From NCBI GenBank assembly GCA_963920575.1, contig OY986968.1, positions 6,069,485-6,133,484 of the forward strand: a stretch of 64,000 nt of DNA, given 5' to 3'. The DNA comes from Narthecium ossifragum (lineage: Eukaryota > Streptophyta > Magnoliopsida > Dioscoreales > Nartheciaceae). The notes beneath the pieces are model-generated. The model had not been told where the DNA came from, searched no databases, and worked only from the letters and a program-made list of their open reading frames with translations. The position numbers were made by a program, and so were the translations under genes. Shown here in pieces: positions 797-61,057 of this stretch (position 1 is its first letter; each line of letters starts with the position of its first letter).

Positions 797-2597
797 TGAT
801 GAGTGCATGAAAGTGCACTCTGAACAACCTTAAAACCATCTCAATTGCTAGATTATTATCCTTAATCAGTATCTTTATTTCTATTTTTATATCTATATGT
901 TGCTTCACATGGTTGTTTGGAAAATGCAGGAAATTGGAGCTAAAAGAAGCTGAAAAGAGTATATGGATCAACTTCAACAATTAATTTGTACCTGCTCATG
1001 AAGAATCAGAAGATGTACCATATATGGTTGGAAAGCTCTTGAAGTCTAGATTCTGGAGAATTTTACGGTTCGTAATTCCGAGTTTCCTAGAAGAAGTTAC
1101 GGCAATTTCAGTATCAATGCGCAGTCTGAATGGCAGAAAGGAAAATAAGCTGGAAGTCCGAGCGAAGGTCCGATCGATCGGACCTGGCAAAATCGTGACA
1201 GAACATATAGTTTTTGGCTGAATATGGTTCGATCGATCGAACCATCACTCCTACTGAGCCCGATCGATCCGACTCCTAGAGTTGGATCTATCGGACTCAA
1301 AAATACCCAGAGCATGTGGATTTTTATGCATCTGATCGATCCAACACTCATAATTCGATCGATCGGACTTGGGAATTAAAGGGTGACAGAACGTATGCTT
1401 TTTAGAGGAGCAGAGTTCGATCGATCCGTCCATCGATCGAACTTGGGAAGAGCCAGAGACGAAGGATTTTTACGAAATCGATCGATCCAACTCCCTTAGT
1501 CCGATCGATCGGACACGGGCGAAGCTAGAAGATTGGAGATCTCAAGAGACCGATCGATCCAACATCCCGAGAAGGATCGATCGGACTTGCCCAGTGACGA
1601 AAATCAACGGTTTTGATTAATCCGAGTTTACTAATTCTTGGACCCTATAAATAGGAAACTTAGGGCTAATCAAGGAGGACTTCTTGGACGTTTTTGGAGG
1701 CTCTTTTCTGAGTGTTTCTCAAGGGAAGAAGATGAAGGAATCTTCATCCATGGCCGAGTAATCCACGGGCATGGCGGACGGATGATCTAGTGAGGATTAG
1801 GGTTTCTTCTCCAACGATGGTTCATGTTTTTAATCTTTATTGTTAAACTCTTCTTATGTATTGGATCTTCACAGATTGCTTTGTGGTTAAACATTATTAT
1901 AAATCCAGTCATGCTTCTTTTATGATATTGTGATCCCATAGTTATCGCCTTTGATTCTCCTACCGAGTCTCGTGAGACCTTTGCTATGCATTGCCCGTAG
2001 TGACAGCTGGTATTGTATATTCTTAGGGATCTGGTTAGATAAGGTTGGGGCTCTATACCGAGAGATCTTTGCTATGCATTGCCGATTGTGAGAGTTGGTA
2101 TTGTGTAATCTTAGAGATCCGATTAGAGTTAGGGCTTTGTCCCGATGAACTTTTGCTGCGCGTTGCCTGTAGTGACAGCCGGTATCGTGTATTCTTAGGT
2201 TTGGTTGGATGAAGTTAGGACTATAAAAAGGAAGAACCAATCATAGGAAGAGACATTTATATTTTATCATATTCATAATTCTATATCTTCCTGTTAAGGC
2301 GATTGGGATGTGAATCCCTTAACTGAGTATCATATGAACCATTGAGAAGAAAAGAACCTAAATCCGAGTGAAGTGATTCCTGAAGCCTAGCCTCATTCAA
2401 ATCTTGATTTCTTTCGTTAACTTTATCTTATCATCACATCTTCGATCTATTTTCTTAACTTTCATTGCTCTTGATTGTTTTCAACTCATTGTTATCTGTG
2501 TTTCTGGATCTTTCCTGCTTGTCTCTCTGTGGGATTCGACCTCTCTTATGCTGTACTGCACCGCGACCGCTGTGCGTGACACATTTGAGCGACATCA
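797..2597 (+). repeat. Athila-family-1 3' LTR (1.8 kb)
   Basis: It starts TGATGAGTGC after the polypurine tract and ends GAGCGACATCA, the same ends as the two LTRs at 42478-44308 and 47428-49259. A TATA box (TATAAATAG, 1646-1654) places 797 to about 1680 in U3. U3 carries an array of paired GATCGATC palindromes (about 1172-1582). The downstream part (1900-2250) holds three imperfect repeats of about 90 bp with a GCTATGCATTGCC core. This copy lacks at least one palindrome pair that the two other copies have. Confidence 0.9.
1172..1582. promoter_or_regulatory. Array of paired GATCGATC palindromes in U3 of Athila family 1
   Basis: Palindromes or one-mismatch versions begin at 1172, 1231, 1262, 1285, 1334, 1357, 1419, 1431, 1480, 1503, 1552 and 1575. 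Four pairs have starts exactly 23 nt apart (1262/1285, 1334/1357, 1480/1503, 1552/1575), and one pair is 12 apart (1419/1431). The array lies upstream of the TATA box. Boxes reading TGACAGAAC (1196-1204 and 1384-1392) lie between pairs. The function is unknown. Confidence 0.8.
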
Positions 2598-15373: not shown

Positions 15374-17558
15374 AACATGGGTTGCCACCTCATCCATAAC
15401 TATCTAGTCATGGGCACCATGGCGATGGTGACGTGTGCGTCCATGTGGACGCCACGTGTATGCCATGAATGCGTTTTTGCCTACGTGGTATGTGACTGTT
15501 CATCTTCCTGAACAGTCACAAGTGGGCTGAGCTACATTGAGTGAGCCGTTACTTCACCAGAAGTGGGCTGAATCAGTTATGACTCTTGGTCTCCCCATGG
15601 TGCCCATGACTAGGCAGTTATGGATGAGGTGGCAACCCATGTTCTCCTAGATGGTTGTTACTGGTGTCGTGGTGTCTGTTCTCCCCACTAAGTGGATGTT
15701 ATTGGTGATGTGGCAGAGTGACAGCCCATGGCTTGGTAGTTACTGATGACGTGACGAGTCTCTTCACCTTCCCACTAAGTGGCTAATCAACTAGCCTAGC
15801 TAGCCTATAAATAGGACCCCATACCAGTCATTCAAGAGCTAGCTCATTGATGTGTTGCGAACGTGTCGTTAAAATGTTGCTAACCTCAATCAAATCTTAA
15901 ATTTATATCCTTATTCAATCACTAATACTACTACGTAGACTAGTGCTGAAATCCGGAGTCGAACCACAGGGAATTACCAGGAAAAACAAAATAAGTTCTC
16001 AAAACTCTAGATCTAAGCTAACAAATTCAATGATAGATTGATCTAACTGAAACTATTTAAAAAAGCAAAAGAAAATATTAATGTTTTAATCAAATGGAAA
16101 AGATGTCTTAGGAAATACACAATCCACCCTAGTTTCACCCTTAATCTTCCCTAGTTATCATCTTGATCACTTCTCTAACCATTATGGATCGTATGGCTAC
16201 AAGCTCACACGAATCCCTAAAAGAAGGTTTTATGTTTCCTACAGCATAATCTATCTTTGTTTGGCATAAATCATCTTCGGTCCTACCATTATCTTAAGTT
16301 ATTCTACTCCTAATAACCTTAGTATGACTTATCTTCATGTAGCATAGATTATCTCAAAGGCAAATCACAAAACCACATGAAAACTATCTCATGAATCTCT
16401 ATAATCAAGTACAACCATCATGTAGGACTAAGAATACGTCAACGGAACTTTGTTCCTTCAACTCTATAATCATTAAAAACATATTCATGAGATTATACGT
16501 AGAGAAGTTCACAAAAATTCAACTAACAAAGATCAAAAGTTACACCAGGGTTTCATGGTATTCCTAAGAACAATAAATCTAGCCACTCATCTCTTGGAAA
16601 TCATGAATCGATGTAGAAGATGAAGCCATTGATCCCCACAGAAAGATCGCCGTCTTCGGATTCTCCACCCTCTTCTCTCTCTATTATTTATCCAAAAGAT
16701 TCTCTGTCAAAAAAACCCCCAAAATTCGGCCAAAAAGACCCCTTTTATATGGCCCAAAACCCTAACTTAAAGTCTCCCTCGGATTAGATCTTAACCCTAG
16801 GTTTCTGCAGATCCGCCCAGACTCAGATCGATCTTCTTTGAGGGCTCAGATCAATCCGGTTTGTCCGTAGCTTCTTTCTTAGCACCTCTGTACTAAAAGT
16901 AGCATAACTTCCTCTACGAAACTCCAAATCTCGAACCGTAAAAACTTCCGGAATCTTAACTTCCCGAACTTTCCAACAATACATAGCACATTCTCTAGTT
17001 CGTTCTGAGAAGGTACAGATTTAATATTGAATACGACCTATCTTTGCTTATTTAGCTCCAAACTTGATCTAATCTTCACCGAGGACCCTAATATCTGAAA
17101 TAAACAAAAACTATTCAAAATAGCATTGCTCGGTGACTAACAAGACCTAGTTAAAAGGGTTATTTGTATACTTTTCATGACTTATCACTCATGCATACAC
17201 ATGTCACCACACCGCTTGCCCAATAGAGGGTTCTGATTGAGAGTACCGTACCATCTTGGAATTCGAAGGGCGATCGGACGGTCGGCTTCCCTCCAATATT
17301 GGTGGATCTTTGTACTTTAGGAGCTTTTTGCCTGAAAACCCAAAAGCAAGGGGTGGTGGGCATATAGAGCTTACGGGCACAGTGTAGCACACTGGCATCA
17401 ATCAAGCGGATTTTCTTCAACGGCGTTGTCTTTATGATCTTTTCTTTTTTTTTTGGATTAACGATACGTGAAATTTATTTATTTTATTAAAATCAATTGT
17501 AAAGGATTCTTTGCTATTATTAATTAAAAGCAAGGGTCCTAATTGCTTATTTCTAACA
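15374..17558 (+). repeat. Partial second copy of the Copia LTR, interrupted by a solo LTR
   Basis: From about 15415 the sequence repeats 13611-14447 (TATA box at about 15807, LTR end TTTCTAACA at 17558) without the first third of the LTR. At its left edge 15374-15422 is an inverted copy, with two mismatches seen, of 15595-15643 inside the same LTR. The Athila-like solo LTR 15848-17187 splits it. This is a rearranged tandem duplication rather than an independent insertion, because the right flank is also repeated. Confidence 0.75.
15848..17187 (-). repeat. Solo LTR, Athila-like family 3
   Basis: It is flanked by CTCAT on both sides (15843-15847 and 17188-17192). On the minus strand it starts TGATAAGTCATG and ends CGCAACACATCA. 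It is related to the solo LTR 33231-36325 (shared TTAGTGATTGAATAAGGA-like and TTTTAACGAC stretches), and the start resembles the LTR 53777-55415. It contains one GATCGATC/GATCAATC pair with starts 23 nt apart (16826 and 16849). Confidence 0.88.
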
Positions 17559-22836: not shown

Positions 22837-23074
22837 GATCGATCCTTCTCTCCAGGTGATCGATCCTCTTCAGGAGGTAGCAGCTCTATGGATATATAGG
22901 ATCGATCTTCAATGGAATAGAAGATCGATCTTACTTTGTAAACAAAAGTGACAGAGAGCATATTTTGTAAAGATCGATCATTCTCTATAGTAGGATCGAT
23001 CCTCTTCGGGATACTGGAATCCATCGACGCCCGAGCATACAAGGATCGATCATTCTCTTTCAATAGGATCGATC
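22837..23074. promoter_or_regulatory. GATCGATC pair array in U3 of the Copia LTR (left copy)
   Basis: Palindrome starts are 22837/22858, 22900/22923, 22973/22995 and 23044/23067, giving distances of 21, 23, 22 and 23. The array lies upstream of the TATA box. A box GTGACAGAGAGCATATTTTG follows the second pair (about 22948). The right LTR holds the same four plus one extra pair. Confidence 0.8.
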
Positions 23075-23543
23075 CTTTCCTATTGGATGGACAAATCCGA
23101 TGGCTCAGATCTAATCCGAATTTGGGTTTATTGGAGGCTATAAATAGAGTGCTTTTAGGATTTCTTTTGTGTGGTTGAGAGTTTGAGAGGTGAGAAAGTA
23201 GGCAACCGTAGAGAGAGATCTATTTGTCTCTGCTAAGGATTTGGGCTTTGTAATCTCTCTCTCATAGTGAAAATTCCCTCTACTGCCCGTGGTTTTTTTT
23301 TCTTTCCAGTTGTTGCTGGTAGGTTTTTCCACAAAAATCCTTGTCTCCACTATTTTCTTTTCTTTGTGGTTTGGTTGTATCTCTTCCACTGCGACATCCC
23401 CGTCATTATCTGGTGCATCTCCGGCATCGTCGGGACCCCTCAGATTACCAACAAGTGGTATCAGAGCTGAGGTTCTGAGATTAGGAGGATTCAAATCCCT
23501 GATCAAGATTCTACGTCCCTAATCAAGATCTGAAGCATCTGGG

Positions 23544-24773: not shown

Positions 24774-25082
24774 GATCGATCATTTAGGGCCTAAATGATC
24801 GATCTTTCTTTGCATTATTCCAGACAGAGAGCACTTTATCAGAGGATCGATCCTTCTCTCCAGGTGATCGATCCTCTTCAGGAGGCAACAGCTCTACGGA
24901 TATATAGGATCGATCTTCAATGGAATAGAAGATCGATCTTACTTTGTAAACAAAAGTGACAGAGAACACATTTTGTAAAGATCGATCCTTCTCTATAGTA
25001 GAATCGATCCTCTTCAGGATACTGGAATCCATCGACACTCGAGCATACAAGGATTGATCATTCTTTTTCAATAGGATCGATC
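24774..25082. promoter_or_regulatory. GATCGATC pair array, right LTR, with one extra pair
   Basis: Pairs start at 24774/24797, 24845/24866, 24908/24931, 24980/25002 (one mismatch) and 25052/25075 (GATTGATC first). The first pair forms an almost perfect 31-nt hairpin with 15-bp arms and has no counterpart in the left LTR of this same element. Confidence 0.8.
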
Positions 25083-25468
25083 CTTTCCTATTGGATGGAC
25101 AAATCCGATGGCTCAGATCTAATCCGGATTTGGGTTTATTGGAGGCTATAAATAGAGTGCTTCTAGGATTTCTTTTGTGTGGTTGAAAGGAGTTTGAGAG
25201 GTGAGAAAGTAGGCAACCCTAGAGAGAGATCTCTTTGTCTCTGCTAGGGATTTGGGCTTTGTAATCTCTCTCTCATAGTGAAGATTTTCTCTGCTGCCCG
25301 TGGTTTTTTTCCCTTCCAGTTGTTGCTGATAGGTTTTTCCACGTAAATCCTTATCTCCATTATTTTCTTTTCTTTGTGGTTTGGTTGTATCTCTTCCGTT
25401 GTGACATCCTCGTCATTATCTGACGTATCTCTGGCATCGTCGAGACCCCTCAGATTCCCAACATAAAT

Positions 25469-37242: not shown

Positions 37243-39663
37243 TGTCGCGCCCCGACCCGCAGACGCCAAACCGGGCCGAGACACGAGGGGGAAAGACCTA
37301 CAACTATTAGCTTCAACTGGCGGAAACAGTTGAAACTAATAGACAGCTGGCAGAAACAGCTGACAACAAGAACAAGGCAGAAGCAAACGTATTAACATCT
37401 ATTACCATCTATTACAAGACAAATATAATAGAGTTAACAAGAGTTCTAGTACAACAGGTTTACAAGGGATCAACTAAAGTCCCCAAAAGCTACGACACCC
37501 ACCAGGGTCTCCGCGAAGGCACAAACAAACCCATCCTGACCCTCAGACATGGCCAGGAGCCGGCGCGCTACCACGAGACGACCGACGGGGAAGCACCGGA
37601 GAGGAGCTGGGACCCGCACCTGCAAACAACACAGTCCAGGTAGGAATGAGCACCAGCTCAGCAGGGTCCTACTCTACCACTCTCGCAAAAAAGGCAACAC
37701 CAAACGAACCAACTCTGAAGCCAAGTACTGAGGCTTGCCAAGGATCCTATAAATCCCGTCAATAACCCGAAGGGCTCCTGTCCCAAGTACGCCCCTCTGA
37801 CAACCACTGCTCAGGGATGGGCAACTCCGACAATCCCTGACACATGGTGGACATGGCGCTACTAGTAAGACACCCTTCTCCAAGCGGGATCTCCACACTT
37901 GGCGGAACAACCGTGGTTAAGACTACCATCTCTCAGTACTCCAAGCAGCAGAGCCAACACGACCCCCAACAACCGACCAACAACTAAGTCTAGCCAAGGA
38001 GTCCATTGATCCCATCGATGGTTCTCCCCCCCATCCAGGGTTCCTGTCCAACATACGTCCCTCCGACAGCCACTGCTCGAGGACTGGGCTACCTCCGACG
38101 GTCCCTGACACAGGGTGGGCAAGTCGATACCTGTAGGACACCCTTACCCTTGCTGGACACCAACAAGGGGACACGAGTCGGGGTAACGGCATCCACCACT
38201 TAGCCTTTGATCACCGAAGTTCACGGGTCGACCCCACCCAGTGTAACCTAGCATGTCTAATGCACAGGAAGCAGGGCAGGATATGAATAAGGAAAACAGT
38301 AACAAACAACACAGCAGGGGCACACCTTCGGCCCATTTAAACTAACCACTCCCGAGGGTCATGACTCCTTCGGTTCACCACAAAGCAGTAAAGGGCATAC
38401 CGTCAGCCCATTTATCCTACATATCCCGAGAGGCATCATCCTCTCGGTTCAACCACATAGCAGTAAATATTCAAGCATGGTGAGCAACATGATAAGCCCC
38501 AAGGGCAGAACCGTCAAAACCACCTACATGCGAAGCCCCACGGGCAAAACCGCATTTAAACAAGTAAAATTCTTCCCTGCATCGAAGGAGATCGATCCTA
38601 TGCAGCAATGGGATCGATCTTCCTCGAGGCTAGCAGTACCTGTCCTGGTCACCCAAACGGGATTGATCCCCACCCATATGGGGATCGATCTCGTATGTGA
38701 CGTAAGGGACACCTCAGCTGACCGCCAAGAGATCGATCTCCCAACCCCAGGGAGATCGATCCCGCTCGGGCGGGGCGTGCCACCCCCAAAGAGATCGATC
38801 CCAAGCTATATGGGATCGATCCCAATGGGTGCACCGGCGGCCGATCGGCGAAGAATACCGCCGGAACCGCAACCATTCCTCATCAAACTTGATGGACTGG
38901 TAGATCTAAGAACCACGAAGCTACTCATGGCTTCAAAACCGGAAAACATCAACTATGCAAGGAGATCTATTGAAATCAAAACTGGATTTCAAAATCCTTA
39001 AAACAAGCCGGCGTCTTTGAGTGGGATCCCTACCTCCACAGAGCTGCTTCGATCCACGAAGCCTAGCCTAGGATCTTCCTCACGCCGTCACGGTTCCAAC
39101 GAGCCTTCAAGCTCCAAGAACGATGGCCGGAGGAGGGAGAACGGAGGAGGAAAGGGGGCTGCCGGAACAGGGGAAGAAAACAGAGCCGGGAGGAAGAAGA
39201 GGGAAGAAGAGAAAGAAAGGGAGGAGGAGGGGAAGGGGATAAGGCCGGGGAAAGCCGGCGAAAGCGGGGGAAAGGCGAAGGAGGGGAGCAAAAGTCTCCC
39301 CTCCCCTGACAGGGGAAGCGACGGCCATTGCCGTGGCCGTCCTTCGAACTCCACCGCCAACGACTTCCAGGGCAAGTGAGATCGATCTCCATTGCATGCG
39401 GGATCGATCCCTAGCAAACGGGATTGATCCCCCTTGACAAAGGGATCGATCTCCTATGCCCAGAAAGGCAAACTTGGGCTGAGATACAAGCCCAAGCCCA
39501 GATCTTTCGATCTCGGGTCCACCTAACCTTTCTAAACAAACACAAGCACCAAACAGGGTCTGTGTGTGCACACCCAGTGTGAAACGACTGCTAAGGCACA
39601 ATTTCCCATATTGCCCTTGTGGTCAACCACAAGTCAAGGGAAAAAGAGGGGCGGGTCCTCACA
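37243..39663 (-). repeat. 3' LTR of the gag-only Tekay element (uninterrupted copy)
   Basis: This intact copy shows what the other LTR looked like before insertion: GTATGTGACGTAAGG at 38694-38708 runs straight through the site where the Athila element entered the sister LTR. It contains a GA-rich block (39108-39290) and two groups of GATCGATC pairs. Confidence 0.92.
38590..38821. promoter_or_regulatory. GATCGATC pair array in the Tekay LTR
   Basis: Pairs start at 38590/38612, 38661/38683 (first is GATTGATC), 38731/38754 and 38793/38814, with distances of 22, 22, 23 and 21. A second group lies at 39380/39402 and 39422/39444. Several sites differ from their partners in the sister LTR by C-to-T at the CpG, as expected from cytosine methylation decay. 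Confidence 0.75.
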
Positions 39664-39858
39664 TTCTAAAACCCTTAAAAGAAATCTCGTCCTCAAGATT
39701 CGATCAAGGTAGGGGTCGGAAACGAAAACAACGCCTAACAGGATACTACAAAGCGGTTAAAGTTACCTCTGGAGGTGGGTGGTGCTACGGTCAGTGGAAG
39801 CGGGTGCTGAGACAGGTAGTCCTGATAGGACGGCTGCACCTCGTCTGTGTAGGGGTGG

Positions 39859-42477: not shown

Positions 42478-44308
42478 TGATGTCGCTCAAATGTGTCACG
42501 CACAGCGGTCGCGGTGCAGTACAGCATAAGAGAGGTCAAATCCCACAGAGAGACAAGCAGGAAAGATCCAGAAACACAGATAACAATGAATTGAAAACAA
42601 TCAAGAGCGATGAAAGTTAAGAAAATAGATCGAAGATGTAATGGTAAGATAAAGTTAACGAAAGAAATCAAGATTTGAATGAGGCTAGGCTTTAGGAATC
42701 ACTTCACTCGGATTTAGGTTCTTCTCTTCTCAATGGTTCATATGATACACAGTTAAGGGATTCACATCCCAATCGCCTTAACCGGAAGATATGGAATTAT
42801 GAATCTGATAAAATATAAATGTCTCTTTCTATGATTGATTCCTCCTTTTTATAGTTCTAACTTCATCCAGCCAAACCTAAGAATACACGATACCGGCTGT
42901 CACTACAGGCAACGCGCAGCAAAAGTTCATCGGGACAAAGCCCTAACTCTAACCGGATCCCTAAGAATACACAATACCAACTCTCACAATCGGCAATGCA
43001 TAGCAAAGATCTCTCGGTATAGAGCCCCAACCTTATCTAACCAGATCCCTAAGAATATACAATACCAGCTGTCACTACGGGCAATGTATAGCAAAGGTCT
43101 CACGAGACTCGGTAGGAGAATTAAAGGAGATAACTATGGGATCACAATATCATAAAAGAAGCATGACTGGATTTATAATAATGTTTAACCACAAAGCAAT
43201 CTGTGAAGATCCAATACATAAGAAGAGTTTAACAATAAAGATTAAAAACATGAACCATCGTTGGAGAAGAAACCCTAATCCTCGCTAGATCATCCGTCCG
43301 CCATGCCCGTGGATTACTCGGCCATAGATGGAGATGTATCCTTCTTTTTTCTCTTGAAAAACTCCTGAAAAGAGCCTCCAAAAACGTCCAAGAAGTCCCC
43401 TTTGATTAGCCCTAAGTTTCCTATTTATAGGGTCCAAGAATTAGTAAACTCGGATTAATCAAAACCGTTGATTTTCGTCACTGGGCAAGTCCGATCGATC
43501 CTTCTCGGGATGTTGGATCGATCGGTCTCTTGAGATCTCCAATCTTCTAGCTTCGCCCGTGTCCGATCGATGGACGGATCGATCGAACTCTGCTCCTTTA
43601 AAAAGCATACGTTCTGTCACCCTTTAATTCCCAAGTCCGATCGATCGGATTATGTATGTTGGATCGATTGGTTGAGTAAAAATCCGCTGTTTTTGACTTT
43701 TTCCGAGTCCGATCGATCAGACCATTGGTGTCGGATCGATCGGACCCTATGGGAGCGAAGGAGGGATCGATCGGATCATAAAAATCCACATTCTCTGGGT
43801 ATTTTTGAGTCCGATAGATCCAACTCTAGGAGTTGGATCGATCGGGCTCAGTAGGAGTGATGGTTCGATCGATCGAACCATATTCAGCCAAAAACTACAT
43901 GTTCTGTCACGGTTTTGCCAGGTCCGATCGATCGGACCTTCGCTCGGACTTCCAGCTTATTTTCCTTTCTGCCATTCAGACTGCGCATTGATACTGAAAT
44001 TGCCGTAACTTCTTCTAGGAAACTCGGAATCACGAACCGTAAAATTCCCCAGAATCTAGACTTCAAGAGATTTCCAACCATATATGGCACATCATCTGAT
44101 TCTTCATGAGCAGGTACAGATTAATTGTTGAAGTTGATCCATATACTCTTTTCAGCTTCTTTTAGCTCCAATTTCCTGCATTTTCCAAACAACCATGTGA
44201 AGCAACATATAGATATAAAAATAGTAATAAAGATGCTGATTAAGGATAATAATCTAGCAATTGAGATGGTTTTAAGGTTGTTCAGAGTGCACTTTCATGC
44301 ACTCATCA
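42478..44308 (-). repeat. 3' LTR of the gag-only Athila element
   Basis: It starts (minus) TGATGAGTGC, ends GAGCGACATCA. Palindrome pairs start at 43493/43516, 43639/43662, 43711/43734 and 43813/43836 (all 23 apart) and 43565/43577 (12 apart). A box AAAAACTACATGTTCTGTCA lies at 43890-43909. Confidence 0.93.
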
Positions 44309-45549
44309 CACCCCCCAACCAGCTTATTGCTAGTCTCTAGCAATTCAAAGCGCATAGAATATAATTAAGCACACTAACGGTTCAAGGATGTAGACAAGCA
44401 TGATAAAAATTCTACCTTATCAAGTCAATAGTGTTTCATACAGTACAGAGCATGAAAACTTCTTATACTCATACACATACTACCAACATATGAAATCAAC
44501 TTCTACACATCAAAACATGCTAATCACCATCCAGAAGAACACATGTGAGATGACAAATAAATGTTACGTGCAGAAGCAACTTCTACCCACCATTAGTCCA
44601 AACACACTACTATCATCATGACCAATCATCCAACCCTCGCACTTTAAGTACAGCATGCTCTTTCTCTATTTTTTTCTTTTCAACTATCAGACATTTTGCC
44701 TTTTTACGCGAGCACTCTCCGCTTCTTGAGGCGCAGAGACCCGGTTACTTAGCAAAACACTTAGTAGTTTTTTTTTTTTTCGCTATAAGTGGTTCTACCT
44801 TTTTATGCGAGCTCCCCGCTTCCTGAGGCAAGAACACCCGGTTACTCAGTAGATCACTTAATAGTTGTTTAGGCACAGCTTTATCAAGCTCGAGAACTTT
44901 TTCTGTTTTTTTTCTGCATGCAATACTCAACACTAGCTAATGTTGAAATCATGGTCTCGATGGACAATAGCATGCTCATTTCTCTAGTGAGTATAATTAC
45001 CACTGCACATAAAGTGTTCGTGTGTGGATCACATGATGTTATACGTTCAGGTTATCACGCATGCAATCAATGTATTGGTCAATCCATATGAAAGCAACAT
45101 ATAGAATAAGCATAAAAATTTCAGCTCATGTACAATTTCTAATATCATATTCAATTCAACACTATTAAGCTCAATAAGGTAGCATGCATAAGGTCATGCA
45201 TGCCTACACCCCCCAACCTGAAATTCACATTGTCCTCAATGTGTGCTAATCGTGTAAATAAGCAGAAGGGTATTGGCTGAATTTTCATATATGACAGAAA
45301 TAAAAATAGGAAATCGAAATAAGAGCGAGGCCACCTGACAGATTAAGCAAATATCTCCTCAAGGCTCCTCATGGTGGCCGAAATCTTCATCTCAATGATG
45401 GCTGGCCAAAATCTCCAACGGAAGGCAGGGACTGCTCGAGCACCTAAAAAAAAAAAGCAAAACAACCGAAAACAAAAGCAAACATGCAAGCACACAATAT
45501 AAAAATAACTCAAGCATTCTCAAGCATACAAGAAAGCAAATCGAGCAAG
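44309..45549 (-). other. 3' noncoding region of the gag-only Athila element
   Basis: No coding frame. It contains two direct copies of a segment of about 80 bp (about 44690-44760 and 44785-44860) with GTAACCGGG and GTAAAAAGG on the minus strand. The same region occurs at 230-420 and, in a single related copy, at 56130-56200 of the other Athila family. The conservation suggests a function in the RNA, which is an inference. Confidence 0.6.
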
Positions 45550-47202: not shown

Positions 47203-47404
47203 CTTTTCTTATTTTTCAATTTTTTTTTTGGTCAGTTTTTTTTTAGCAAATAAAAATAAAACGAAAAATCAAAATAAAACTAAAAAAGAAAATAAAGAAA
47301 ACTAAGGAAAAAGAAATAAAAATCCAAACAAAAAGGGACAAAGTTACCGCCTTCGATGTCTTCAATCATCATGATCTATTGATTCTGGCGCTTTTCTGAA
47401 CCGT

Positions 47405-47422
47405 CTCCCCGGCAACGGCGCC
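47405..47422 (-). promoter_or_regulatory. Primer-binding site for Asp tRNA
   Basis: The minus strand reads TGGCGCCGTTGCCGGGGA, separated by a few bases from the end of the 5' LTR (47428). This is the complement of the 3' end of plant Asp tRNA and the characteristic primer of Athila elements. Confidence 0.93.
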
Positions 47423-47427
47423 AATTT

Positions 47428-49259
47428 TTGATGTCGCTCAAATGTGTCACGCACAGCGGTCGCGGTGCAGTACAGCATAAGAGAGGTCGAATCCCACAGA
47501 GAGACAAGCAGGAAAGATCCAGAAACACAGATAACAATGAATTGAAAACAATCAAGAGCGATGAAAGTTAAGAAAATAGATCGAAGATGTAATGGTAAGA
47601 TAAAGTTAACGAAAGAAATCAAGATTTGAATGAGGCTAGGCTTTAGGAATCACTTCACTCGGATTTAGGTTCTTCTCTTCTCAATGGTTCATATGATACA
47701 CAGTTAAGGGATTCACATCCCAATCGCCTTAACCGGAAGATATAGAATTATGAATCTGATAAAATATAAATGTCTCTTTCTATGATTGATTCCTCCTTTT
47801 TATAGTTCTAACTTCATCCAGCCAAACCTAAGAATACACGATACCGGCTGTCACTACAGGCAACGCGCAGCAAAAGTTCATCGGGACAAAGCCCTAACTC
47901 TAACCGGATCCCTAAGAATACACAATACCAACTCTCACAATCGGCAATGCATAGCAAAGATCTCTCGGTATAGAGCCCCAACCTTATCTAACCAGATCCC
48001 TAAGAATATACAATACTAGCTGTCACTACGGGCAATGTATAGCAAAGGTCTCACGAGACTCGGTAGGAGAATTGAAGGAGATAACTATGGGATCACAATA
48101 TCATAAAAGAAGCATGACTGGATTTATAATAATGTTTAACCACAAAGCAATATGTGAAGATCCAATACATAAGAAGAGTTTAACAATAAAGATTAAAAAC
48201 ATGAACCATCGTTGGAGAAGAAACCCTAATCCTCGCTAGATCATCCGTCCGCCATGCCCGTGGATTACTCGGCCATAGATGGAGATGTCTCCATCTTTTT
48301 TCTCTTGAAAAACTCCTGAAAAGAGCCTCCAAAAACGTCCAAGAAGTCCCCTTTGATTAGCCCTAAGTTTCCTATTTATAGGGTCCAAGAATTAGTAAAC
48401 TCGGATTAATCAAAACCGTTGATTTTCGTCACTGGGCAAGTCCGATCGATCCTTCTCGGGATGTTGGATCGATCGGTCTCTTGAGATCTCCAATCTTCTA
48501 GCTTCGCCCGTGTCCGATCGATGGACGGATCGATCGAACTCTGCTCCTTTAAAAAGCATACGTTCTGTCACCCTTTAATTCCCAAGTCCGATCGATCGGA
48601 TTATGTATGTTGGATCGATTGGTTGAGTAAAAATCCGCTGTTTTTGACTTTTTCCGAGTCCGATCGATCGGACCATTGGTGTCGGATCGATCGGACCCTA
48701 TGGGAGCGAAGGAGGGATCGATCGGATCATAAAAATCCACATTCTCTGGGTATTTTTGAGTCCGATAGATCCAACTCTAGGAGTCGGATCGATCGGGCTC
48801 AGTAGGAGTGATGGTTCGATCGATCGAACCATATTCAACCAAAAACTACATGTTCTGTCACGGTTTTGCCAGGTCCGATCGATCGGACCTTCGCTCGGAC
48901 TTCCAGCTTATTTTCCTTTCTGCCATTCAGACTGTGCATTGATACTGAAATTGCCGTAACTTCTTCTAGGAAACTCGGAATCACGAACCGTAAAATTCTC
49001 CAGAATCTAGACTTCAAGAGCTTTCCAACCATATATGGCACATCATCTGATTCTTCACGAGCAGGTACAGATTAATTGTTGAAGTTGATCCATATACTCT
49101 TTTCAGCTTCTTTTAGCTCCAATTTCCTGCATTTTCCAAACAACCATGTGAAGCATCATATAGATATAAAAATAGTAATAAAGATGATGATTAAGGATAA
49201 TAATCTAGCAATTGAGATGGTTTTAAGGTTGTTCAGAGTGCACTTTCATGCACTCATCA
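47428..49259 (-). repeat. 5' LTR of the gag-only Athila element
   Basis: Nearly identical to 42478-44308, including the palindrome array (about 48440-48890) and the TATA box near 48375 (minus strand). Its outer end abuts the GTGAC duplication at 49260-49264. Confidence 0.93.
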
Positions 49260-50821
49260 GTGACGTAAGGGACACCTCAGCTGACCGCCAAGTGATTGAT
49301 CTCCCAACCCCAGGGAGATCGATCCCGCTCGGGCGGGGCGTGCCACCCCCAAAGAGATCGATCCCAAGCCATATGGGATCGATCCCAATGGGTGCACCGG
49401 CGGCCGGTCGGCGAAGAATACCGCCGAAAACCACAACCATTCCTCATCAAACTTGATGGACTGGTAGATCTATGAACCACGAAGCTACTCATGGCTTCAA
49501 AACCGAAAAACATCAACTATGCAAGGAGATCTATTGAAATCAAAACCGGATTTCAAAATCCTTAAAACAAGCCGGAGTCTTTGAGTGGGATCCCTACCTC
49601 CAAAGAGCTTCTTCGATCCACGAAGCCTAGCCTAGGATCTTCCTCACGCCGTCACGGTTCCAACGAGCCTTCAAGCTCCGAGAACGGTGGCCGGAGGAGG
49701 GAGAACGGAGGAGGAAAGGGGGCTGTCGGAACAGGGGAAGAAAATAGAGCCGGGAGGAAGAAGAGGGAAGAAGAGAAAGAAAGGGAGGAGGAGGGGAAGG
49801 GGATAAGGCCGGGGAAAGCTGGCGAAGGCGAGGGAAAGGCGAAGGAGGGGAGCAAAAGTCTCCCCTCCCCTGACAGGGGAGCCGACGACCATCGCCGTGG
49901 CCATCCTTCGAACTCCACCGCCAACGACTTCCAGGGCAAGTGAGATCGATCTCCATTGCATGCGGGATCGATCCCAAGCAAACGGGATCGATCCCCCTTG
50001 ACAAAGGGATTGATCTCCTATGCCCAGAAAGGCAAACTTGGGCTGAGACACAAGCCCAAGCCCAGATCTTCCAATCTCAGGTCCACCTAACCTTTCTAAA
50101 CAAACACAAGCACCAAACAAGGTCTGTGTGTGCACACCCAGTGTGAAACGACCGCCAAGGCGCAATTTTCCAAATTGCCCTTGTGGTCAACCACAAGCCA
50201 AGGGAAAAAGAGGGGCGGGTCCTCACAATCAGAGCTCGATGGGGAAAGATCGAATCGGACGGTCGAGAACGATCTGGATCTCTATATAAGGCCTGTCCCT
50301 TTCTCTCTCATTCTTTCTCTTCTCTCCTGTCGTTTTCTCTCTCTCTCTCCTACGGTTGTGCTAGGGCTTTAGAGCGTGGCTTTCGTGGCGCGGATCTTGG
50401 CGGTTCGATTGGTTGGACGTGTGGAGGAGCTACCTTACTTGCTCAAGTAGGTGTTTCTACTTCGATCTCGTCATCGGGTTCTCCTAGGATAGATTTAATG
50501 CCTTTTCACTGTAGGAATACTTGTTAGAATGTTATGTAGTTCATTGCACATGTGTTGTGGATGGTTTGAAGTATTCCTACCTTACGATTTCCGTATTTTA
50601 ACGGCTGGTTTCCGTATTATCGCCGTTTTGTCGGTTTTCGCCTGTTTTGACCTAGATAGGAGATTTAACCATCAAAAATGTAATTTCTTAATACCATTGA
50701 ATTCCCCATCGTTATTTACGTTTGCTTGCAAAATCTCATTGATCTCCAACAAGTTTTGATGTTTGAAATCCAAGGAATTGGATTTCCAGCACTGTTCTAA
50801 TGAACAGTGTAATAGGCTCCA

Positions 50822-52582: not shown

Positions 52583-53779
52583 TTGTCGTCTCTGGTAAAC
52601 GTGCAGATGACAGGGAGTCGGGCTAGCTGTCCAGTCTTGAGTCGTGGTAGTGCGCGCGAGGAGCGCGCCGCCCGACGAGCCTTAGGGGCCAACACAGCCT
52701 TGCCCCGGGGATCTGCACCAGAGCCAGAGCCGAGGATTGAGGTCGTGATGGAGGAGGATGCTTCTTTCATCGCCGAGGAGGTCTCTCCTCCACTCGACCA
52801 GCGTGCTGTTGTGACAGCGGTGGTCGACTTCCAGAGGCTGAACCCGCCTATGTTCAGCGGTGCTGGAGGCAATCCAACGATTGCGGACGACTGGCTGGAG
52901 GGAGTCAGTCGCGTCCTTGACACTCTGTTCGTCCAGGATGATCGGGTTCGGGTCAAAATTGCCACGTTCCAGCTCGACGGGGATGCTTTTTACTGGTGGC
53001 GCTCTTTCCAGGCCGCCAGGGACGGGAGTGACCCATCTTGGGCCATGTTTCGTTCGTCGTTTCTTGGCGCGTTTTTTCCCTGCAGCGCGCGCTCGGCCCT
53101 TGTCCGTGAGTACCAGACCCTTTCTCAGGGTACTCAGTCGGTAGTACAGTACGCGGCTAGGTTCACGAGACTTGCCAGATTCGCCGGTGCGGTGTCGACG
53201 GACCCTCTTGCCAGAGCGGAGCAGTTCCAGTGGGGGCTTAGGCCCGAGCTCAGGCGGCTGATCACGGCACAGCGCGCTAGCACGTACGCAGAGGCGATGG
53301 ACTATGCCTTAGCTGTTGAGGCTCAGTTGCAGGAGCCGGGGCCCAGGGCAGTCCAGCCGGCGTCGTCTGCGAGTGCCAGTGGCAGAGGACAGCCGCAGAG
53401 AGCAGCTCAGGGCAGAGGACGCTCGTGGAGGCCGCGGCAGAGGTACCCACGACGCCAGCAGCCATACCAGCGTCACCCACCCCAGTACCAGCAGCAGCCT
53501 AGGCAGGGAGGCCAGCCACTTCTTCCGGCTGGGCCTCAGGGGCAGATGTCCGGAGGAGGTGGCCAGAGCCAGCAGCTAGCGCTTGGACCTCCTGTGTGCT
53601 TCGAGTGCCGGCAGACATGGCACTTTCGCCAAGACTGTCCGACGTTGAGGGCACAGTCAGTTCGTGGCGGAGCAGGCGGAGGTTGGCGGACACCAGGAGC
53701 CGGGAGAGGCAGAGGTCGCGGCGGAGGTCGAGGCGAACCCAGAGGGGGAGTTTACGCACTTCCAGACCGCGAGTACTGA
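52583..53779 (+). pseudogene. Tekay-type gag, truncated by an Athila insertion
   Basis: The frame is open from 52583; the likely real start is the Met at 52607 (MTGSRASCPV). Capsid core: FQRLNPPMFSGAGGNPTIAD, DDWLEGVSRVLDTLF, MFRSSFLGAFFPCSARSAL, VVQYAARFTRLARFAGAV, LRRLITAQRAS. An Arg/Gln-rich linker is followed by a zinc knuckle CFECRQTWHFRQDC, with Trp where Gly is usual, and a Gly/Arg-rich tail ending YALPDREY. The stop TGA at 53777-53779 is not its own: it is the first three bases of the Athila LTR. In the intact family gag continues into protease, so this is a truncated product of about 390 residues. Confidence 0.88.
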
Positions 53780-54708
53780 TACGTCTTGAAAAGTGTCGTG
53801 ACTTAACAAGACTGACCAAAATTACAATATATTCCGGTGCTCTACTTTAACTACTAAGGACTAGTAGATAGTGGAGAGTCCGAATCGAGTCCACAGGGAT
53901 TTCAGGGATTTAAATCAAATACTTAGCAAATCTCCTACTAATAAGTTGAGAAAAGATTGCAAGTTGAAATTAAACTAAAACTATACTAAAGGATTGAAGA
54001 ATATGAGAGAAAGGACCATAGGATTCTTAATCAGTAACTAAGGATCTACCAGGTCTTCCAAAGATCAGGGCATGCAGACACGATAAATGGCTCCCTAAAA
54101 GTTGATAAAGAAATGGCTAGTTCTCATTATCACTCGACAAGTTTTGTTTAGGATTCCTTGTCGGCAAGAACAATCAACGAAATATCAGTGACCGAATGAT
54201 TAGTTACGTTCACTGCTAATGAACCCTCTTACTCAGATGAGTTTATCGCAAGCAATGCCATAGAAATGGATTTAGGTGTAATATCGAGATGACTTCGCAT
54301 CTCGATGGCCAAAACTACAAAGATAAGATGCATGAGAGATTAGGGATGGAACGTAGTGGGACTAGCACTACTATAGTGGGACTAGCACTATACAATCCCT
54401 AATCACGAACAAGATTCCATCCGAGATATCATGGGACTAGCATGATCCTTTTATTTAGATGAATCCAATCCACGCCCTAACATACACAAGCTCTAGAATC
54501 AAGTGCAAGCAAGAACGATCCAAACATCCAGCAAGAAATCAACACCAAGATATAGGCAAATATAATCAATCCATAAAACCAAATAATCGTGTATACAAAC
54601 CCTAAATCTAAGAAATCCCTAGCAAAAACCCTAGTTACATCATAAGAATCCCATGGCTAGGGTTTTAGCTACTCATCTTCAGGGGATAATCCATCGGTAG
54701 AAGTTGAT

Positions 54709-54786
54709 GATCTCCTCCCGCCATGGATCTCCTCCCGCCATGGATCTCCTCCCGCCATGGATCTCCTCCCGCCATGGATCTCCTCC
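54709..54786. repeat. 17-bp tandem repeat GATCTCCTCCCGCCATG
   Basis: Four identical copies and a partial fifth, head to tail. They lie downstream of the presumed promoter of the Athila LTR. Frames with repeated GGDPWREEIHGG-type peptides here are by-products. Confidence 0.92.
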
Positions 54787-54950
54787 AAAGAATCGTCGAA
54801 GAAAAGATGTAGAAAAGATAGGTAAACTCTCTCCAAAAACGTCTGGAAAAGGCCCCCCCAAAAATCCCTAAACAATGACTACTTATAGTCCAAGAGACAA
54901 CCACCCTCGGATTAGATCAGAGCCGTCGATCTTTGCTTCTGGCCGCGTCG

Positions 54951-55248
54951 GATCGATCCAACCTTTGAAGCCCGATCGATCCGACTCCTTAACTCCCTTA
55001 ATATTGTGAGCAACGCCCGAGCAGGATCGATCCAACTCTTGGAGTTCGATCGATCCTACGCCTTTATTGCTGGTAACTCTCGAGCTGGATCGATCGGGCT
55101 TGACTTGATCGATCGATCGAACCACCGTTGTTAAGCTACATCCCTTGCTGGATCGATCGGGCACTTGAAGTTCGATCGATCCAGCCGTTATTGATCGTTC
55201 CCTTGTTGGTTGAGTTGGATCGATCGAACCTATTGAGGCCGATCGATC
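54951..55248. promoter_or_regulatory. Five GATCGATC pairs, all with 23-nt spacing
   Basis: Starts are 54951/54974, 55025/55048, 55088/55111, 55151/55174 and 55218/55241; every pair is exactly 23 apart, while pair-to-pair steps are 74, 63, 63 and 67. The 15 nt between the palindromes differ from pair to pair; outer flanks are often complementary (GTCG/CGAC, GCTG/CAGC), so each unit can fold. Located in U3. Confidence 0.88.
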
Positions 55249-55424
55249 TAACTTGTCAGAATCGCCAAAATATCATTCTTTTAGCTCCAAAGATGATCTA
55301 ACTCGTAGCAGGACCTGTTATACCTGAAATGAAAAAAAGTAGTCAATCCAGCATTGCTCGGGGCCCAACAAAGTCAAATTACAAGGGTGTTTTGTGCACT
55401 TTTCAAGTCTTATCACACCCCCCA

Positions 55425-58608: not shown

Positions 58609-58925
58609 GGTAGGGATGAAGATGAAGGACGGCGCCGGCGACGATCAACGGAGCGCAAGGATTCTCGGGTTGAGATGGTGGAATGGGTTTGGACGAAATG
58701 GAGAGGTCGTGAGTGGGGAAGGAGGCCGGAGGAAGGGAATGTGGGGCGGTGGAGGATGATGGTGAGGAGGTCTTGTCGGAGGGGAGACCGACGACCTGCC
58801 GGGAGGATGATCGCGGAGCGGCGGAAACCAAGTGGAACGGGGAGGAAGAAAAAGGGGGAGCGATCAAAGGGGATAATCCCTAGGATCGCTCGGACTCCGC
58901 TTATAACCCCAAGCCTCACGACTTC

Positions 58926-59041
58926 GATCGATCCAGCCCTGGGCGTTGGATCGATCGAAGTCCAAGCGCCACTCAGCCCAAGCACCACGACACACCAAGT
59001 AAGTGAGGAGGATCGATCAAGCGCTATAAGCCCGATCGATC
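58926..59041. promoter_or_regulatory. Two GATCGATC pairs ahead of the env-like ORF
   Basis: Starts 58926/58949 and 59011/59034, both 23 apart. On the coding strand they lie 320-430 bp upstream of the env-like start codon, in the gap after the acidic ORF. Confidence 0.75.
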
Positions 59042-59277
59042 CAACTCTTGCCCCCATGCTAACGCAGTGGAACTACGCAGAACATAGTATCCAACAAGGT
59101 ATCCATGCAACACGAAAAATCCAAGCAAACCGGAGTCCACTGATATTGATGAACTAACAAAACACCGATGCCGAAATAAAATCTGAAGTGCAAAAAGAAA
59201 AACTAGCAATTAACAACCTCAACCTAGACATGCAGCAAGCAAAAGTCCTAGAAAGCAAAATACGAGAGTCCTAAATT

Positions 59278-59799
59278 CTAATCATCGTCGTCCATGTCGT
59301 CCTCGTCCTCGTCCTCCTCGTCGTCCTCGTCGTCCTCGTCAGAATCACTCTCGCTTGACTGTCGGAACAGTGGGCGATCAGGGTCATCCGAGGCATACGG
59401 GGATCCTGGGGGCGAAAGTGCTGGCGATAGAAGCCCCGGATCAATCAGAGATCGTGGAGGCACCACAACAGAGGACCCGTCGGGCAATCGGAAAGCGACC
59501 CATGGATCCTTGAGACCAGGGTCGTGCTCAATAGCATAAACAAGACAGGCAAAGAGATCAGGATCCGAGAACGGCCCAAAAAACTCAACACCGACAGGAT
59601 GGTCGATAACCGAACCGGCAGGATAAATAGGGATGGGGACATCCCAAGGATGGTAACAGTAGACTACCGGTGGCGACGGTGGCCGGCTAGAATCGGCTGA
59701 GTCGGCAAGGTCATCATCAGATGAAAAAAATGAAGCTTGAGACACCGGAGAACCTGGCTCAAACTCATGATCCGACGACGCATGGCTGGAAGTCGACAT
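59278..59799 (-). CDS. Extra acidic ORF of the large Athila element
   Basis: 173 codons, uninterrupted. Residues 1-45 are Ser/Asp-rich; 46-120 form a compact-looking segment (VVYCYHPWDVPIPIYPAGSV, GVEFFGPFSDPDLFACLVYA, DPWVAFRLPDGSSVVVPP); the end is a run of about 25 Asp/Glu residues encoded by a GTCCTC-type microsatellite (59290-59340). I do not recognise the family. It lies between pol and the env-like ORF, where extra ORFs are known in some plant Gypsy elements. An acidic tail could bind basic proteins such as histones or gag, which is speculation. It may be a chance frame in part, but the varied central composition argues for real coding. Confidence 0.5.
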   Translation of the reverse strand: MSTSSHASSDHEFEPGSPVSQASFFSSDDDLADSADSSRPPSPPVVYCYHPWDVPIPIYPAGSVIDHPVGVEFFGPFSDPDLFACLVYAIEHDPGLKDPWVAFRLPDGSSVVVPPRSLIDPGLLSPALSPPGSPYASDDPDRPLFRQSSESDSDEDDEDDEEDEDEDDMDDDD

Positions 59800-60446
59800 T
59801 GAGAGTAACCCTGCATCCGAGATAATTGGTAAGAGAAACCGAAGTAGAATGACTTGACCGTGTAGGATCGCTCGAACCTACAGGTGCCGATCGATCCAAC
59901 ATGGGTGGAGGGAAGAACAAACACCCATAACGGAACAGAGGAGGGAGAGAGATGCAAGAACGGTGGTAACTGGTGAAGAGAACAGCGAAGACAAGCATGC
60001 ATAATGGAAGGTGAAAAGAAACCGAAAACAACAAGAGGAAGGCGACGGCCAGCGGTGATGGAGGCCGGCGTCGTTGGTCGGAAACCATGGCACAAACCAT
60101 GGGTTCGCATGCAAGGGAGAGGTGAAGAAGACACACACACAAGGGATTATCACACTGGCATGGGAGAGATAAAAAGGACGCGTCGGACTCTTACCGGAAA
60201 GTTGCAATTGCCTGGAAGGACACACCGGAAGCCGGGACGACGGTGTTCGCCTAAGCTGGACGCCGATGATTGGAGGAACTCCGGCAACCACGAAACGACT
60301 TATGTAGTTCGCTAGGCCTCGTAGTTGAGGTATGGAGGGGAATAAATAGGCGGCTAAGAGATATGGATTAACTCGGAATGGAGTCCGAGTTGGAGACGGC
60401 GAGGCAGAGGCGCGGAAGATCGGAAGTTATCTCAAGGAACCAGCAG

Positions 60447-61057
60447 GATCGATCGGCCTAGCGAGGATGGATCGATCGAACGCCACGTGGTTGCATCAGG
60501 TGGGCACCGATGAACAATAGCTACTAAAGGCGCCCGATCGATCGAACATGGTGTGCCCGATCGATCGGACCAACTCAAAGAGCACAACCGATGGATGGAT
60601 CGATCGCACGGTGTAGGGCCAAAAACACCACGCTCTGTCACCAATAAATACCTAGACGGATCGATCGAACCCGCTAGGACGGATCGATCGAACCCGCTAG
60701 GACGGATCGATCGAACTCGCACACTTAGTTTTCTCAAAAATGTTGGAGCGAAGGACGGATCGATCGATAGGTTTAGTGTCAAAAACACTACGTTCTGTCA
60801 GGATTACACGCACAAGACGGACCGATCCCGCTCTCAAGCCCCGATCGATCCATTTAGAGCCAGGAATAAAGACAAGATGGAGCGAAGAGCCGATCGATCG
60901 GGTGCTTGTGAGGCAAAAACACCATGTTCTGTCAAAAATAAAGCCACAATTTGGATCGATCGGCCGACATGGGACGGAGCGATCCAACTCCGGAACGAAG
61001 AAAAGTAATGCTAGATGTAAAGAAGGATCGATCGGTCCTTCTATAGCTCGATCGATC
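60447..61057. promoter_or_regulatory. GATCGATC array between pol and the acidic ORF
   Basis: Starts 60447/60470, 60536/60559, 60659/60682/60705 (three in a row), 60820/60843 and 60954/60977 are all 23 apart, allowing one or two mismatches in some; 61026/61050 is 24 apart. Singles occur at 60598, 60758 and 60892. Three boxes like AAAAACACTACGTTCTGTCA (60621-60640, 60781-60800, 60915-60934) lie between them. Confidence 0.82.

What the first reader, a model, noticed from the sequence alone, without database searches (positions are those of the whole stretch)
54951..55248. Paired GATCGATC palindromes with a fixed 23-nt register, shared by unrelated LTR retrotransposons
In the LTR at 53777-55415 all five pairs start exactly 23 nt apart (31-nt unit, variable 15-nt centre), while the steps between pairs vary. 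The same 23-nt register recurs in Athila family 1 (1262/1285, 1334/1357, 1480/1503, 1552/1575; 43493/43516, 43639/43662, 43711/43734, 43813/43836), in a third Athila-like family (16826/16849), in a Copia LTR (22900/22923, 23044/23067, 24774/24797, 24908/24931, 25052/25075), once in a Tekay LTR (38731/38754) and nine times inside the large Athila element. Centres differ, so simple tandem duplication does not explain it. A fixed register suggests two bound protein subunits, a folded RNA hairpin, or self-complementary loops for RNA dimerisation. These are inferences.
Basis: seen in the sequence. Interest (0 to 1): 0.9.

Follow-up and report, generated by a model that had tools for sequence, protein, structure and literature searches.

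The report
Shared promoter module of plant retrotransposons
Paired GATCGATC palindromes in this plant's jumping genes are the outer part of a rigidly spaced promoter that at least two unrelated kinds of retrotransposon share, probably because the same unidentified plant proteins bind it.

Summary
The pairs are real: 97 GATCGATC in the window against 1.4 expected, and 23 exact pairs at 23 nt against 0. The genome (379 Mb, plant, species not identified) holds 78,353 pairs at spacer 10-20, against 53 for the reversed control. The register is not fixed at 23: it is 20-24 nt by family, commonest at 22.

The last pair sits 62-65 nt upstream of a TATA box in 97 of the first 100 places listed by a search of spacers 48-78. 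Whole-genome counts are 7,022 at spacer 48-78 against 176 at 17-47. The full module (pair, 62-66 nt, TATAAATAG) occurs 5,295 times, reversed control 0. Between them lies a conserved core. Between LTR groups, including Copia-type and Athila-type, it averages 0.57 identity, against 0.24-0.28 in the blocks tested upstream.

I read it as an LTR promoter/enhancer bound as DNA by host protein dimers. RNA folding is disfavoured: no G.U preference (57 G.T, 68 A.C), and these arrays lie upstream of the TATA box. The binding protein, and whether it activates or silences, are unknown.

The parts
53777..55415 (-). Target LTR (3' LTR of an Athila-type element lying to its right; TGATAAG...TATCA when read on the minus strand)
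   Evidence: sister LTR at L049:3464-5052, 95.4% over 1641 columns; polypurine tract GGGGGGTG directly beside it at 55416-55423 on the minus strand
54951..55248 (-). Array of five GATCGATC pairs (starts 23 nt apart), 168-465 nt from the 5' end of the 1639-nt LTR
54906..54926 (-). Core element ACGGCTCTGATCTAATCCGAG, 24 nt after the last palindrome
54879..54887 (-). TATA box TATAAGTAG, 63 nt after the last palindrome
1172..1582 (+). Palindrome array in an Athila family 1 LTR copy
1646..1654 (+). TATAAATAG, 63 nt after the last palindrome
16778..16833 (-). Third Athila-like family: palindrome 16826-16833 (its pair partner at 16849 is GATCAATC), core at 16798-16778, weak TATA (ATATAAAAGG) near 16749, which is 76 nt from the palindrome, not 63
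22837..23074 (+). Palindrome array in the Copia 5' LTR copy (spacings 21, 23, 22, 23)
   Evidence: PBS at 23456; copia gag PF14223 at 23898-24335
23100..23147 (+). Core element (23100) and TATAAATAG (23139), 64 nt after the last palindrome
24774..25082 (+). Palindrome array in the Copia 3' LTR copy
25108..25155 (+). Core element and TATAAATAG (25147), 64 nt after the last palindrome
38590..39451 (-). Arrays in the Tekay-like LTR 37243-39666 (mostly 20-22 nt, one pair at 23); no -63 TATA found
43493..43933 (-). Array in Athila family 1, 3' LTR (42478-44308)
43421..43429 (-). TATAAATAG, 63 nt after the last palindrome
48444..48884 (-). Array in Athila family 1, 5' LTR (47429-49259)
48372..48380 (-). 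TATAAATAG, 63 nt after the last palindrome
58858..61057 (-). Arrays inside the large Athila-type element, between the integrase ORF (61970-62620, minus) and the 3' LTR; no core and no TATA found beside them
22950..22955 (+). Second motif, GACAGA, in a linker 16 nt before the next palindrome; also starting at 1197, 1385, 24823 (+) and at 60639, 60799, 60933 (-), each on the sense strand
   Evidence: positions computed from its offsets

Best explanation
The paired palindromes are the distal, repeated part of a U3 promoter/enhancer module that Copia-type and Athila-type LTR retrotransposons of this plant share. The order, read towards the gene, is: one or more units, each a GATCGATC pair 20-24 nt apart, the units often about 63 or 71-72 nt apart and sometimes with (T)GACAGA between them; then a core like ACGGYTSAGATCTAATCCGAG, starting 24-27 nt after the last pair; then TATAAATAG 62-65 nt after the last pair. 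Mechanism (inferred): a host DNA-binding protein binds each palindrome as a dimer, and two dimers sit on one face of the helix two turns apart. This complex stands at a fixed distance and helical phase from a core-bound factor and the TATA-bound initiation complex and drives LTR transcription. Shown here: motif, register, dyad symmetry, orientation, TATA distance, and sharing across superfamilies. Inferred: protein binding, that the protein is the host's, and that the effect is activation.
For: (1) Distance to TATA. In the window, L001 and L009-L048, 66 TATAARTA were found; 17 have a palindrome (up to one mismatch) within 200 nt upstream and 15 of these 17 lie 63-65 nt from it. Copies of one family are included; three DNA-similarity groups are represented. 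Whole genome: 7,022 at N48-78 (control 4) against 176 at N17-47 (control 5). Of the first 100 places listed, 97 are at 62-65 and the others at 53, 53 and 74. (2) Full pair plus TATA: 5,295, control 0. (3) With palindromes masked, 29 cross-group pairs of promoters average 0.57 identity at -47 to -20 and 0.49 at -20 to 0, against 0.25, 0.24 and 0.28 in three blocks upstream and 0.32 downstream. Target-Copia is 0.78 in the core and 0.12 in the block just upstream of it. All 9 core hits in my data have a palindrome 24-27 nt upstream. (4) GACAGA occurs in 19 of 78 deduplicated linkers (1.1 expected) and TGACAGA in 11 (0.4 expected); 17 of the 19 lie 15-16 or 27-28 nt before the next site. All 13 in arrays of assigned direction are on the sense strand. 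(5) No G.U bias. (6) Family-specific symmetric extensions of the palindromes.
Against: No expression, binding or accessibility data exist here, and the binder is unknown. Arrays also occur without the -63 TATA: the Tekay-like LTR, the internal arrays 58858-61057, the 16826 family (76 nt), and L029, L016 and L022, where a different TATA lies 22-23 nt after a site. One GACAGA (L029 near 730) is on the strand opposite to the TATA of that locus, if both belong to one element. Pair-level flank covariation survives within-array shuffling, and 227 doubly changed but still complementary pairs exist genome-wide; the matching non-compensatory count did not complete. In local data complementary doubles are not in excess (4 of 27). 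L043 and the Copia LTR are 80% alike over 66 nt from core to TATA, which also fits exchange of promoter DNA. Genome counts are not corrected for descent within families, and the 100 listed places are the first on contig 1.
Confidence: 0.66

Rival explanations
1. The same DNA module is a docking site for a host silencing or chromatin factor (RNA-directed DNA methylation or heterochromatin recruitment) rather than an activator.
For: The sites are abundant, shared by unrelated element families, and each carries a CpG. CpG transitions are 24 of 62 single-arm variants, as expected if the sites are methylated. DNA binding alone does not tell activator from repressor.
Against: Elements would be expected to lose such sites rather than multiply them (inference). 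The strict, one-sided distance to a TATA box suits transcription initiation better. The GACAGA motif is directional.
Confidence: 0.17
2. The pairs are RNA hairpins or self-complementary loops in the element's transcript (dimerisation, packaging, processing).
For: Each pair can fold into a stem. Inner and outer flanks are complementary (z 5-11 at positions 1-4 against shuffles across families), a remainder persists within arrays (outer z 4.1 at n=131, 2.5 at n=42), and 227 compensatory double changes exist genome-wide.
Against: Most of the complementarity is a family-wide extension of each site. No G.U excess on the sense strand (57 vs 68; 21 vs 26). Local double variants: 4 complementary, 13 identical, 10 other, of 27 (10 of the 13 are GGTCGATC tandem repeats). 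In the LTRs with the -63 TATA the arrays lie upstream of it, so they would be in the transcript only through the 3' LTR.
Confidence: 0.08
3. A common promoter segment spread among LTR families by recombination and tandem duplication, and its spacing is inherited rather than selected.
For: Several families are related in DNA: L035 and L030 are about 70% alike to the Copia LTR, and L036 is tied to that group mainly through L030, L041, L046 and L052; L001, L040 and L043 are about 73-90% alike in parts to Athila-type LTRs or to each other. L043 and Copia are 80% alike over 66 nt. Steps of 71-72 nt recur as in a degenerate tandem repeat.
Against: Across groups the stretches between and outside the motifs average 0.24-0.32 identity. 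Inheritance with decay would not be expected to keep 62-65 nt in 97 of 100 listed places and move the three exceptions by about one helical turn.
Confidence: 0.09

Closest known systems
ONSEN/ATCOPIA78 LTR with heat-responsive elements (PMC3907296, passages seen)
   Same: Host transcription-factor sites in a plant LTR; several boxes in the promoter
   Different: One family and one stress factor. Here several families of two superfamilies share sites, spacing and core. GAAnnTTC/TTCnnGAA boxes are not enriched (2 observed, 1.5 expected in 10 promoters), and GATCGATC holds a CpG, whereas the passage says the ONSEN promoter lacks CG
Plant snRNA promoters with upstream sequence element (USE) and TATA at fixed helical spacing (recalled)
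   Same: Rigid, helically phased distance between an upstream element and TATA
   Different: The USE (TCCCACATCG, recalled) has at least 2 mismatches in all 10 promoters; the distance here is about 63 nt and the element is a paired palindrome
VANC-recognised motif arrays in VANDAL transposons (recalled)
   Same: Dense, family-specific short motif arrays in non-coding transposon DNA
   Different: VANDALs are DNA transposons that encode the binder (recalled); here the motif is shared by unrelated LTR elements and no encoded binder was recognised among the ORFs scanned
U3 enhancer boxes such as the Tnt1 BII repeats (recalled)
   Same: Tandem boxes upstream of the TATA box in U3
   Different: Single family; no shared cross-superfamily register or core known to me

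Membership tests
LTR U3 promoter/enhancer | Lies inside an LTR upstream of a TATA box, in the orientation of the element | tested here: met
   Target, Athila 1 and Copia LTRs; not met for the Tekay-like LTR or the internal arrays
LTR U3 promoter/enhancer | Drives transcription from a start site about 30 nt after that TATA box | not testable with these tools
   no RNA data held
ONSEN-type heat-responsive LTR | Clusters of nGAAn / GAAnnTTC heat-shock boxes | tested here: not met
   2 in 10 promoters of 241-250 nt, shuffled mean 1.5
snRNA-type USE/TATA promoter | USE TCCCACATCG (recalled) upstream of TATA | tested here: not met
   best match has 2-4 mismatches in each of 10 promoters
VANC-type anti-silencing motif array | The element encodes the motif-binding protein | tested here: inconclusive
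   20 ORFs scanned with Pfam: 10 of the 90 window ORFs of at least 110 aa, and 10 of 26 ORFs of at least 90 aa in L050-L053. Only gag, zinc-knuckle and integrase domains were found, in 5 of the 20; many ORFs are broken or unscanned
RNA hairpin / dimerisation element | Compensatory changes with G.U tolerance on the sense strand | tested here: not met
   G.T 57 vs A.C 68; 21 vs 26. Weak pair-level covariation remains; the whole-genome arm test is half finished
Simple tandem duplication / minisatellite | Repeat units alike along their whole length | tested here: not met
   Palindromes, short extensions and linker motifs recur within arrays while most spacers differ; some arrays (L038, L039, L047) do hold near-identical neighbouring units

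The most novel reading that the evidence does not exclude
One host DNA-binding complex, a dimer of dimers with paralogues or variants tuned to different palindrome extensions, licenses transcription of a large share of this plant's LTR retrotransposons. Ty1/copia and Ty3/gypsy elements have independently converged on, or traded, the same rigid enhanceosome of about 100 bp, with 5,295 places matching its pair-and-TATA pattern exactly. The genome's mobile DNA would then hang on a single host regulator.
Probability: 0.36. Interest if true: 0.87.

Novelty: new variant of a known kind. Interest (0 to 1): 0.72.

Why it matters
LTR promoters are usually treated as family-specific. A promoter grammar with defined motifs, spacing and orientation that crosses superfamilies gives one testable cause for which retrotransposons a plant expresses and when. 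It also gives a bait for finding the protein, and a ready pattern for scanning other plant genomes to date when the grammar arose.

Tried and rejected
RNA hairpin: entertained first because flanks looked complementary. Rejected as the main reading after within-array shuffles and the sense-strand G.T/A.C counts. A residue of pair-level symmetry is unexplained.

Universal 23-nt register: rejected; 20-24 by family.

Assembly artefact: GATCGATC is also the ligation junction of Chicago libraries (PMC5288721). Rejected, because the arrays recur in both LTRs of one element (99.1%; 95.4%) with a fixed distance to TATA.

Heat-shock boxes and snRNA USE: not found.

Species identity: not found. A gag protein search gave nothing at E 0.001 among the 7,983 candidates scored, and a paper search on '379.4 Mb' gave nothing.

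Literature. Listings: GATCGATC with retrotransposon, 17 papers; hairpin/tandem/palindromic LTR, 20 papers, 15 listed; U3 motif search, 0; ATCGATC with LTR, 17; core strings, 10; regulatory LTR terms, 14; ONSEN, 23, 5 listed; convergent LTR regulation, 0. By titles and abstract starts none describes this module. Passages seen: PMC12786077 and PMC3907296; in PMC5288721, PMC10211496, PMC3116503 and PMC7112179 the string is a library junction, a made-up example or a primer. The other papers were not opened. Motif names marked recalled come from no call.

Rows dropped: pairs were deduplicated from 216 to 173 and to 131, 42 and 11 (where the last setting is too small and the script stopped on a division by zero in its final row); linkers from 125 to 78. 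Oriented tests used only arrays whose direction I assigned by TATA, gag or similarity. The core scan uses a motif drawn from the same promoters and a threshold that misses 4 of the 10 representatives (Ath1, L030, L036, L040).

Corrections made on checking: one search counts each k-mer twice per linker (once per strand), so its printed 22 for TGACAGA is 11 linkers. Two of the 54 rows typed are identical.

Unanswered: the helical side-peak search, the non-compensatory arm count GATTGATC..GATTGATC and GATCAATC..GATTGATC.

Full report
What was checked. The window is G000:C6:6069485-6133484 of a 379.4-Mb genome. I take it for a plant by its Athila- and Copia-type elements and a plant snoRNA match; the species is not identified. 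The window holds 97 GATCGATC against 1.37 in dinucleotide shuffles and 23 exact GATCGATC-N15-GATCGATC against 0. The five pairs at 54951-55248 are as described. Genome-wide, GATCGATC-N10..20-GATCGATC occurs 78,353 times; the reversed pattern occurs 53 times. In 20 samples of 10 kb at preset places on contigs 1-8 (L009-L028) there are 91 sites, and the pair spacing is commonest at 22, then 21, then 23. So the peak is real but is 20-24 nt, with a preferred value per family: 23 in the Athila-type families of the window, 22 in most of the other arrays fetched, 20-21 in the L039/L044/L047 group.

Grammar of the arrays. Steps between sites often repeat as about 22, 49-50, 22, 49-50, 22, 40-42, 22 in arrays whose spacers are not alike. 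Many arrays carry their own symmetric extension of the palindrome, such as ATGATCGATCAT, AAGGATCGATCCTT, TTTGGATCGATCCAAA, GTCCGATCGATCGGAC or GGAGATCGATCTCC. The longer linkers hold a second motif: GACAGA is in 19 of 78 deduplicated linkers (1.1 expected) and TGACAGA in 11 (0.4 expected); one search prints twice these counts because it scores both strands. Of the 19, 11 lie 15-16 nt and 6 lie 27-28 nt before the next palindrome; the other two are at 18 and 25. In arrays of assigned direction (seven linkers in the window, one in L031, two in L035, three in L036) all 13 are on the sense strand; L029 near 730 may be an exception. The target array lacks this motif. A third string, CGCCCGA, is in 7 of 78 linkers (0.1 expected, halved likewise).

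The arrays point at a TATA box. Of 66 TATAARTA in the window, L001 and L009-L048, 17 have a palindrome (up to one mismatch) within 200 nt upstream. Of these 17, 15 lie 63 (10), 64 (3) or 65 (2) nt from it; the other two are at 107 and 192. The target LTR is one of the 15 (TATAAGTAG at 54887, minus strand), and its sister LTR has the same distance (L049 palindrome 4587, TATA 4523). The 15 include copies of the same families. By DNA similarity they fall into a Copia group, an Athila group and the L047 group, whose lineage I could not assign. Whole genome: GATCGATC-N48..78-TATAAATAG 3,668 + 3,354 = 7,022, control 4; N17..47 83 + 93 = 176, control 5. Larger distances were not searched. The first 100 places listed, all in the first 10.5 Mb of contig 1, have 62 (3), 63 (24), 64 (47), 65 (23), and 53 (2) and 74 (1). 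The exceptions are about one helical turn away, but they are three places and two look like sister copies. GATCGATC-N12..16-GATCGATC-N62..66-TATAAATAG: 2,731 + 2,564 = 5,295, control 0.

Shared core. Ten representatives anchored on the TATA box show a conserved block from -47 to -20 (target-L047 0.85, target-L001 0.81, target-Copia 0.78 identical). With palindromes masked, the 29 cross-group pairs average 0.57 there (range 0.22-0.85) and 0.49 at -20 to 0, against 0.25 (-200 to -150), 0.24 (-150 to -105), 0.28 (-63 to -47) and 0.32 after the TATA box. Exceptions in the upstream blocks reach 0.62 (L036-L040, -63 to -47). L043 scores low in this ungapped test, probably because its core is one base out of register. 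A BLAST match joins L043 and the Copia LTR from core to TATA (80% over 66 nt). TAATCCGA is present in 8 of 10. A scan with ACGGYTSAGATCTAATCCGAG (at least 17 of 21) gives 9 hits; all 9 have a palindrome (up to one mismatch) 24-27 nt upstream and 8 of 9 a TATA-like string 18-28 nt downstream; a base-shuffled control gives 0. This scan is drawn from the same promoters and misses 4 of the 10 representatives, so it does not prove that cores never occur alone.

Element identity. Copia: gag PF14223 and TGGTATCAGAGC at 23456 right after the LTR (its assignment to the initiator-Met primer is recalled). Athila family 1: gag PF03732, LTRs 42478-44308 and 47429-49259 at 99.1%, PBS TGGCGCCGTTGCCGGGGA (its link to Athila-type elements is recalled). 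Target: sister LTR at L049:3464-5052, 95.4% identical, and an integrase ORF at 61970-62620. Tekay as a name for 37243-50230 was not tested.

DNA or RNA. Flank complementarity is strong when partners are shuffled across families (z 5-11 at positions 1-4) but largely vanishes when they are shuffled within arrays, so it is mainly a family-wide extension of each site. A pair-level remainder stays (outer flanks z 4.1 at n=131, 2.5 at n=42, 1.0 at n=11; inner z 2.1, 0.8, 1.0), while single-site symmetry within arrays shows none. The pair therefore behaves as a weak dyad. Sense-oriented mismatches are G.T 57 and A.C 68 (p 0.37), and in a second, hand-copied set 21 and 26: no wobble preference. In the LTRs with the -63 TATA the arrays are upstream of it. 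The spacer centre is C-rich on the sense strand (of 89 oriented pairs 51 C>G, 19 G>C, 19 equal). A whole-genome arm test is half done: GATTGATC..GATCAATC 227 places, control 1, counterpart unanswered; locally 4 of 27 double variants are complementary. CpG transitions make up 24 of 62 single-arm variants, which fits methylated, decaying copies.

Interpretation. The simplest account is a U3 promoter/enhancer read as DNA. Two protein dimers sit two turns apart, repeated in units of about 63 or 71-72 nt, at a fixed phase from a core factor and TATA. That Copia and Athila LTRs keep the motifs and distances while most other sequence differs points to a common host requirement, reached by convergence or by exchange of promoters. 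Activation is inferred. A silencing dock is the main rival. The protein is unknown.

Limits. No expression or binding data; one genome; counts not corrected for family descent; arrays without the -63 TATA exist (Tekay-like LTR, internal arrays 58858-61057, the 16826 family at 76 nt, and a second class with TTCGTTTGCCTATAAA 22-23 nt after a site in L029, L016 and L022). Literature was seen only as listings and passages.

Noticed in passing
window 46931-47037 (+): Rfam match to the plant snoRNA snoR71 (46.2 bits, gathering score 40) on the strand opposite the Athila family 1 gag ORF 45550-47208: a captured snoRNA or a chance match.
   Followed up: no
window 10570-10697; L025 5568-5695: GGTCGATC, one base off the palindrome, six times in a row at exactly 24 nt; in the window it overlaps ORF 10194-10844. 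A different 24-nt repeat, possibly coding.
   Followed up: no
L029 220, L016 3450, L022 2290 and 4908: A second promoter class: TTCGTTTGCCTATAAA 22-23 nt after the last GATCGATC of a run.
   Followed up: partly
window 58858-61057: Palindrome arrays between the integrase ORF and the 3' LTR of the large Athila-type element, with sense-strand GACAGA motifs but no core or TATA found; could be an internal enhancer.
   Followed up: partly
G000, several contigs, e.g. C2:24370153-24370200: A class GATCGATCGGTCCCTGGAGCGATCGATCGGACTCGAGCCTATAAATAG in which the second palindrome ends only 11 nt before TATA.
   Followed up: no
window 42478-49259 within 37243-50230: Nested insertion: the Athila family 1 element sits inside the 5' LTR of the Tekay-like element.
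   Followed up: partly
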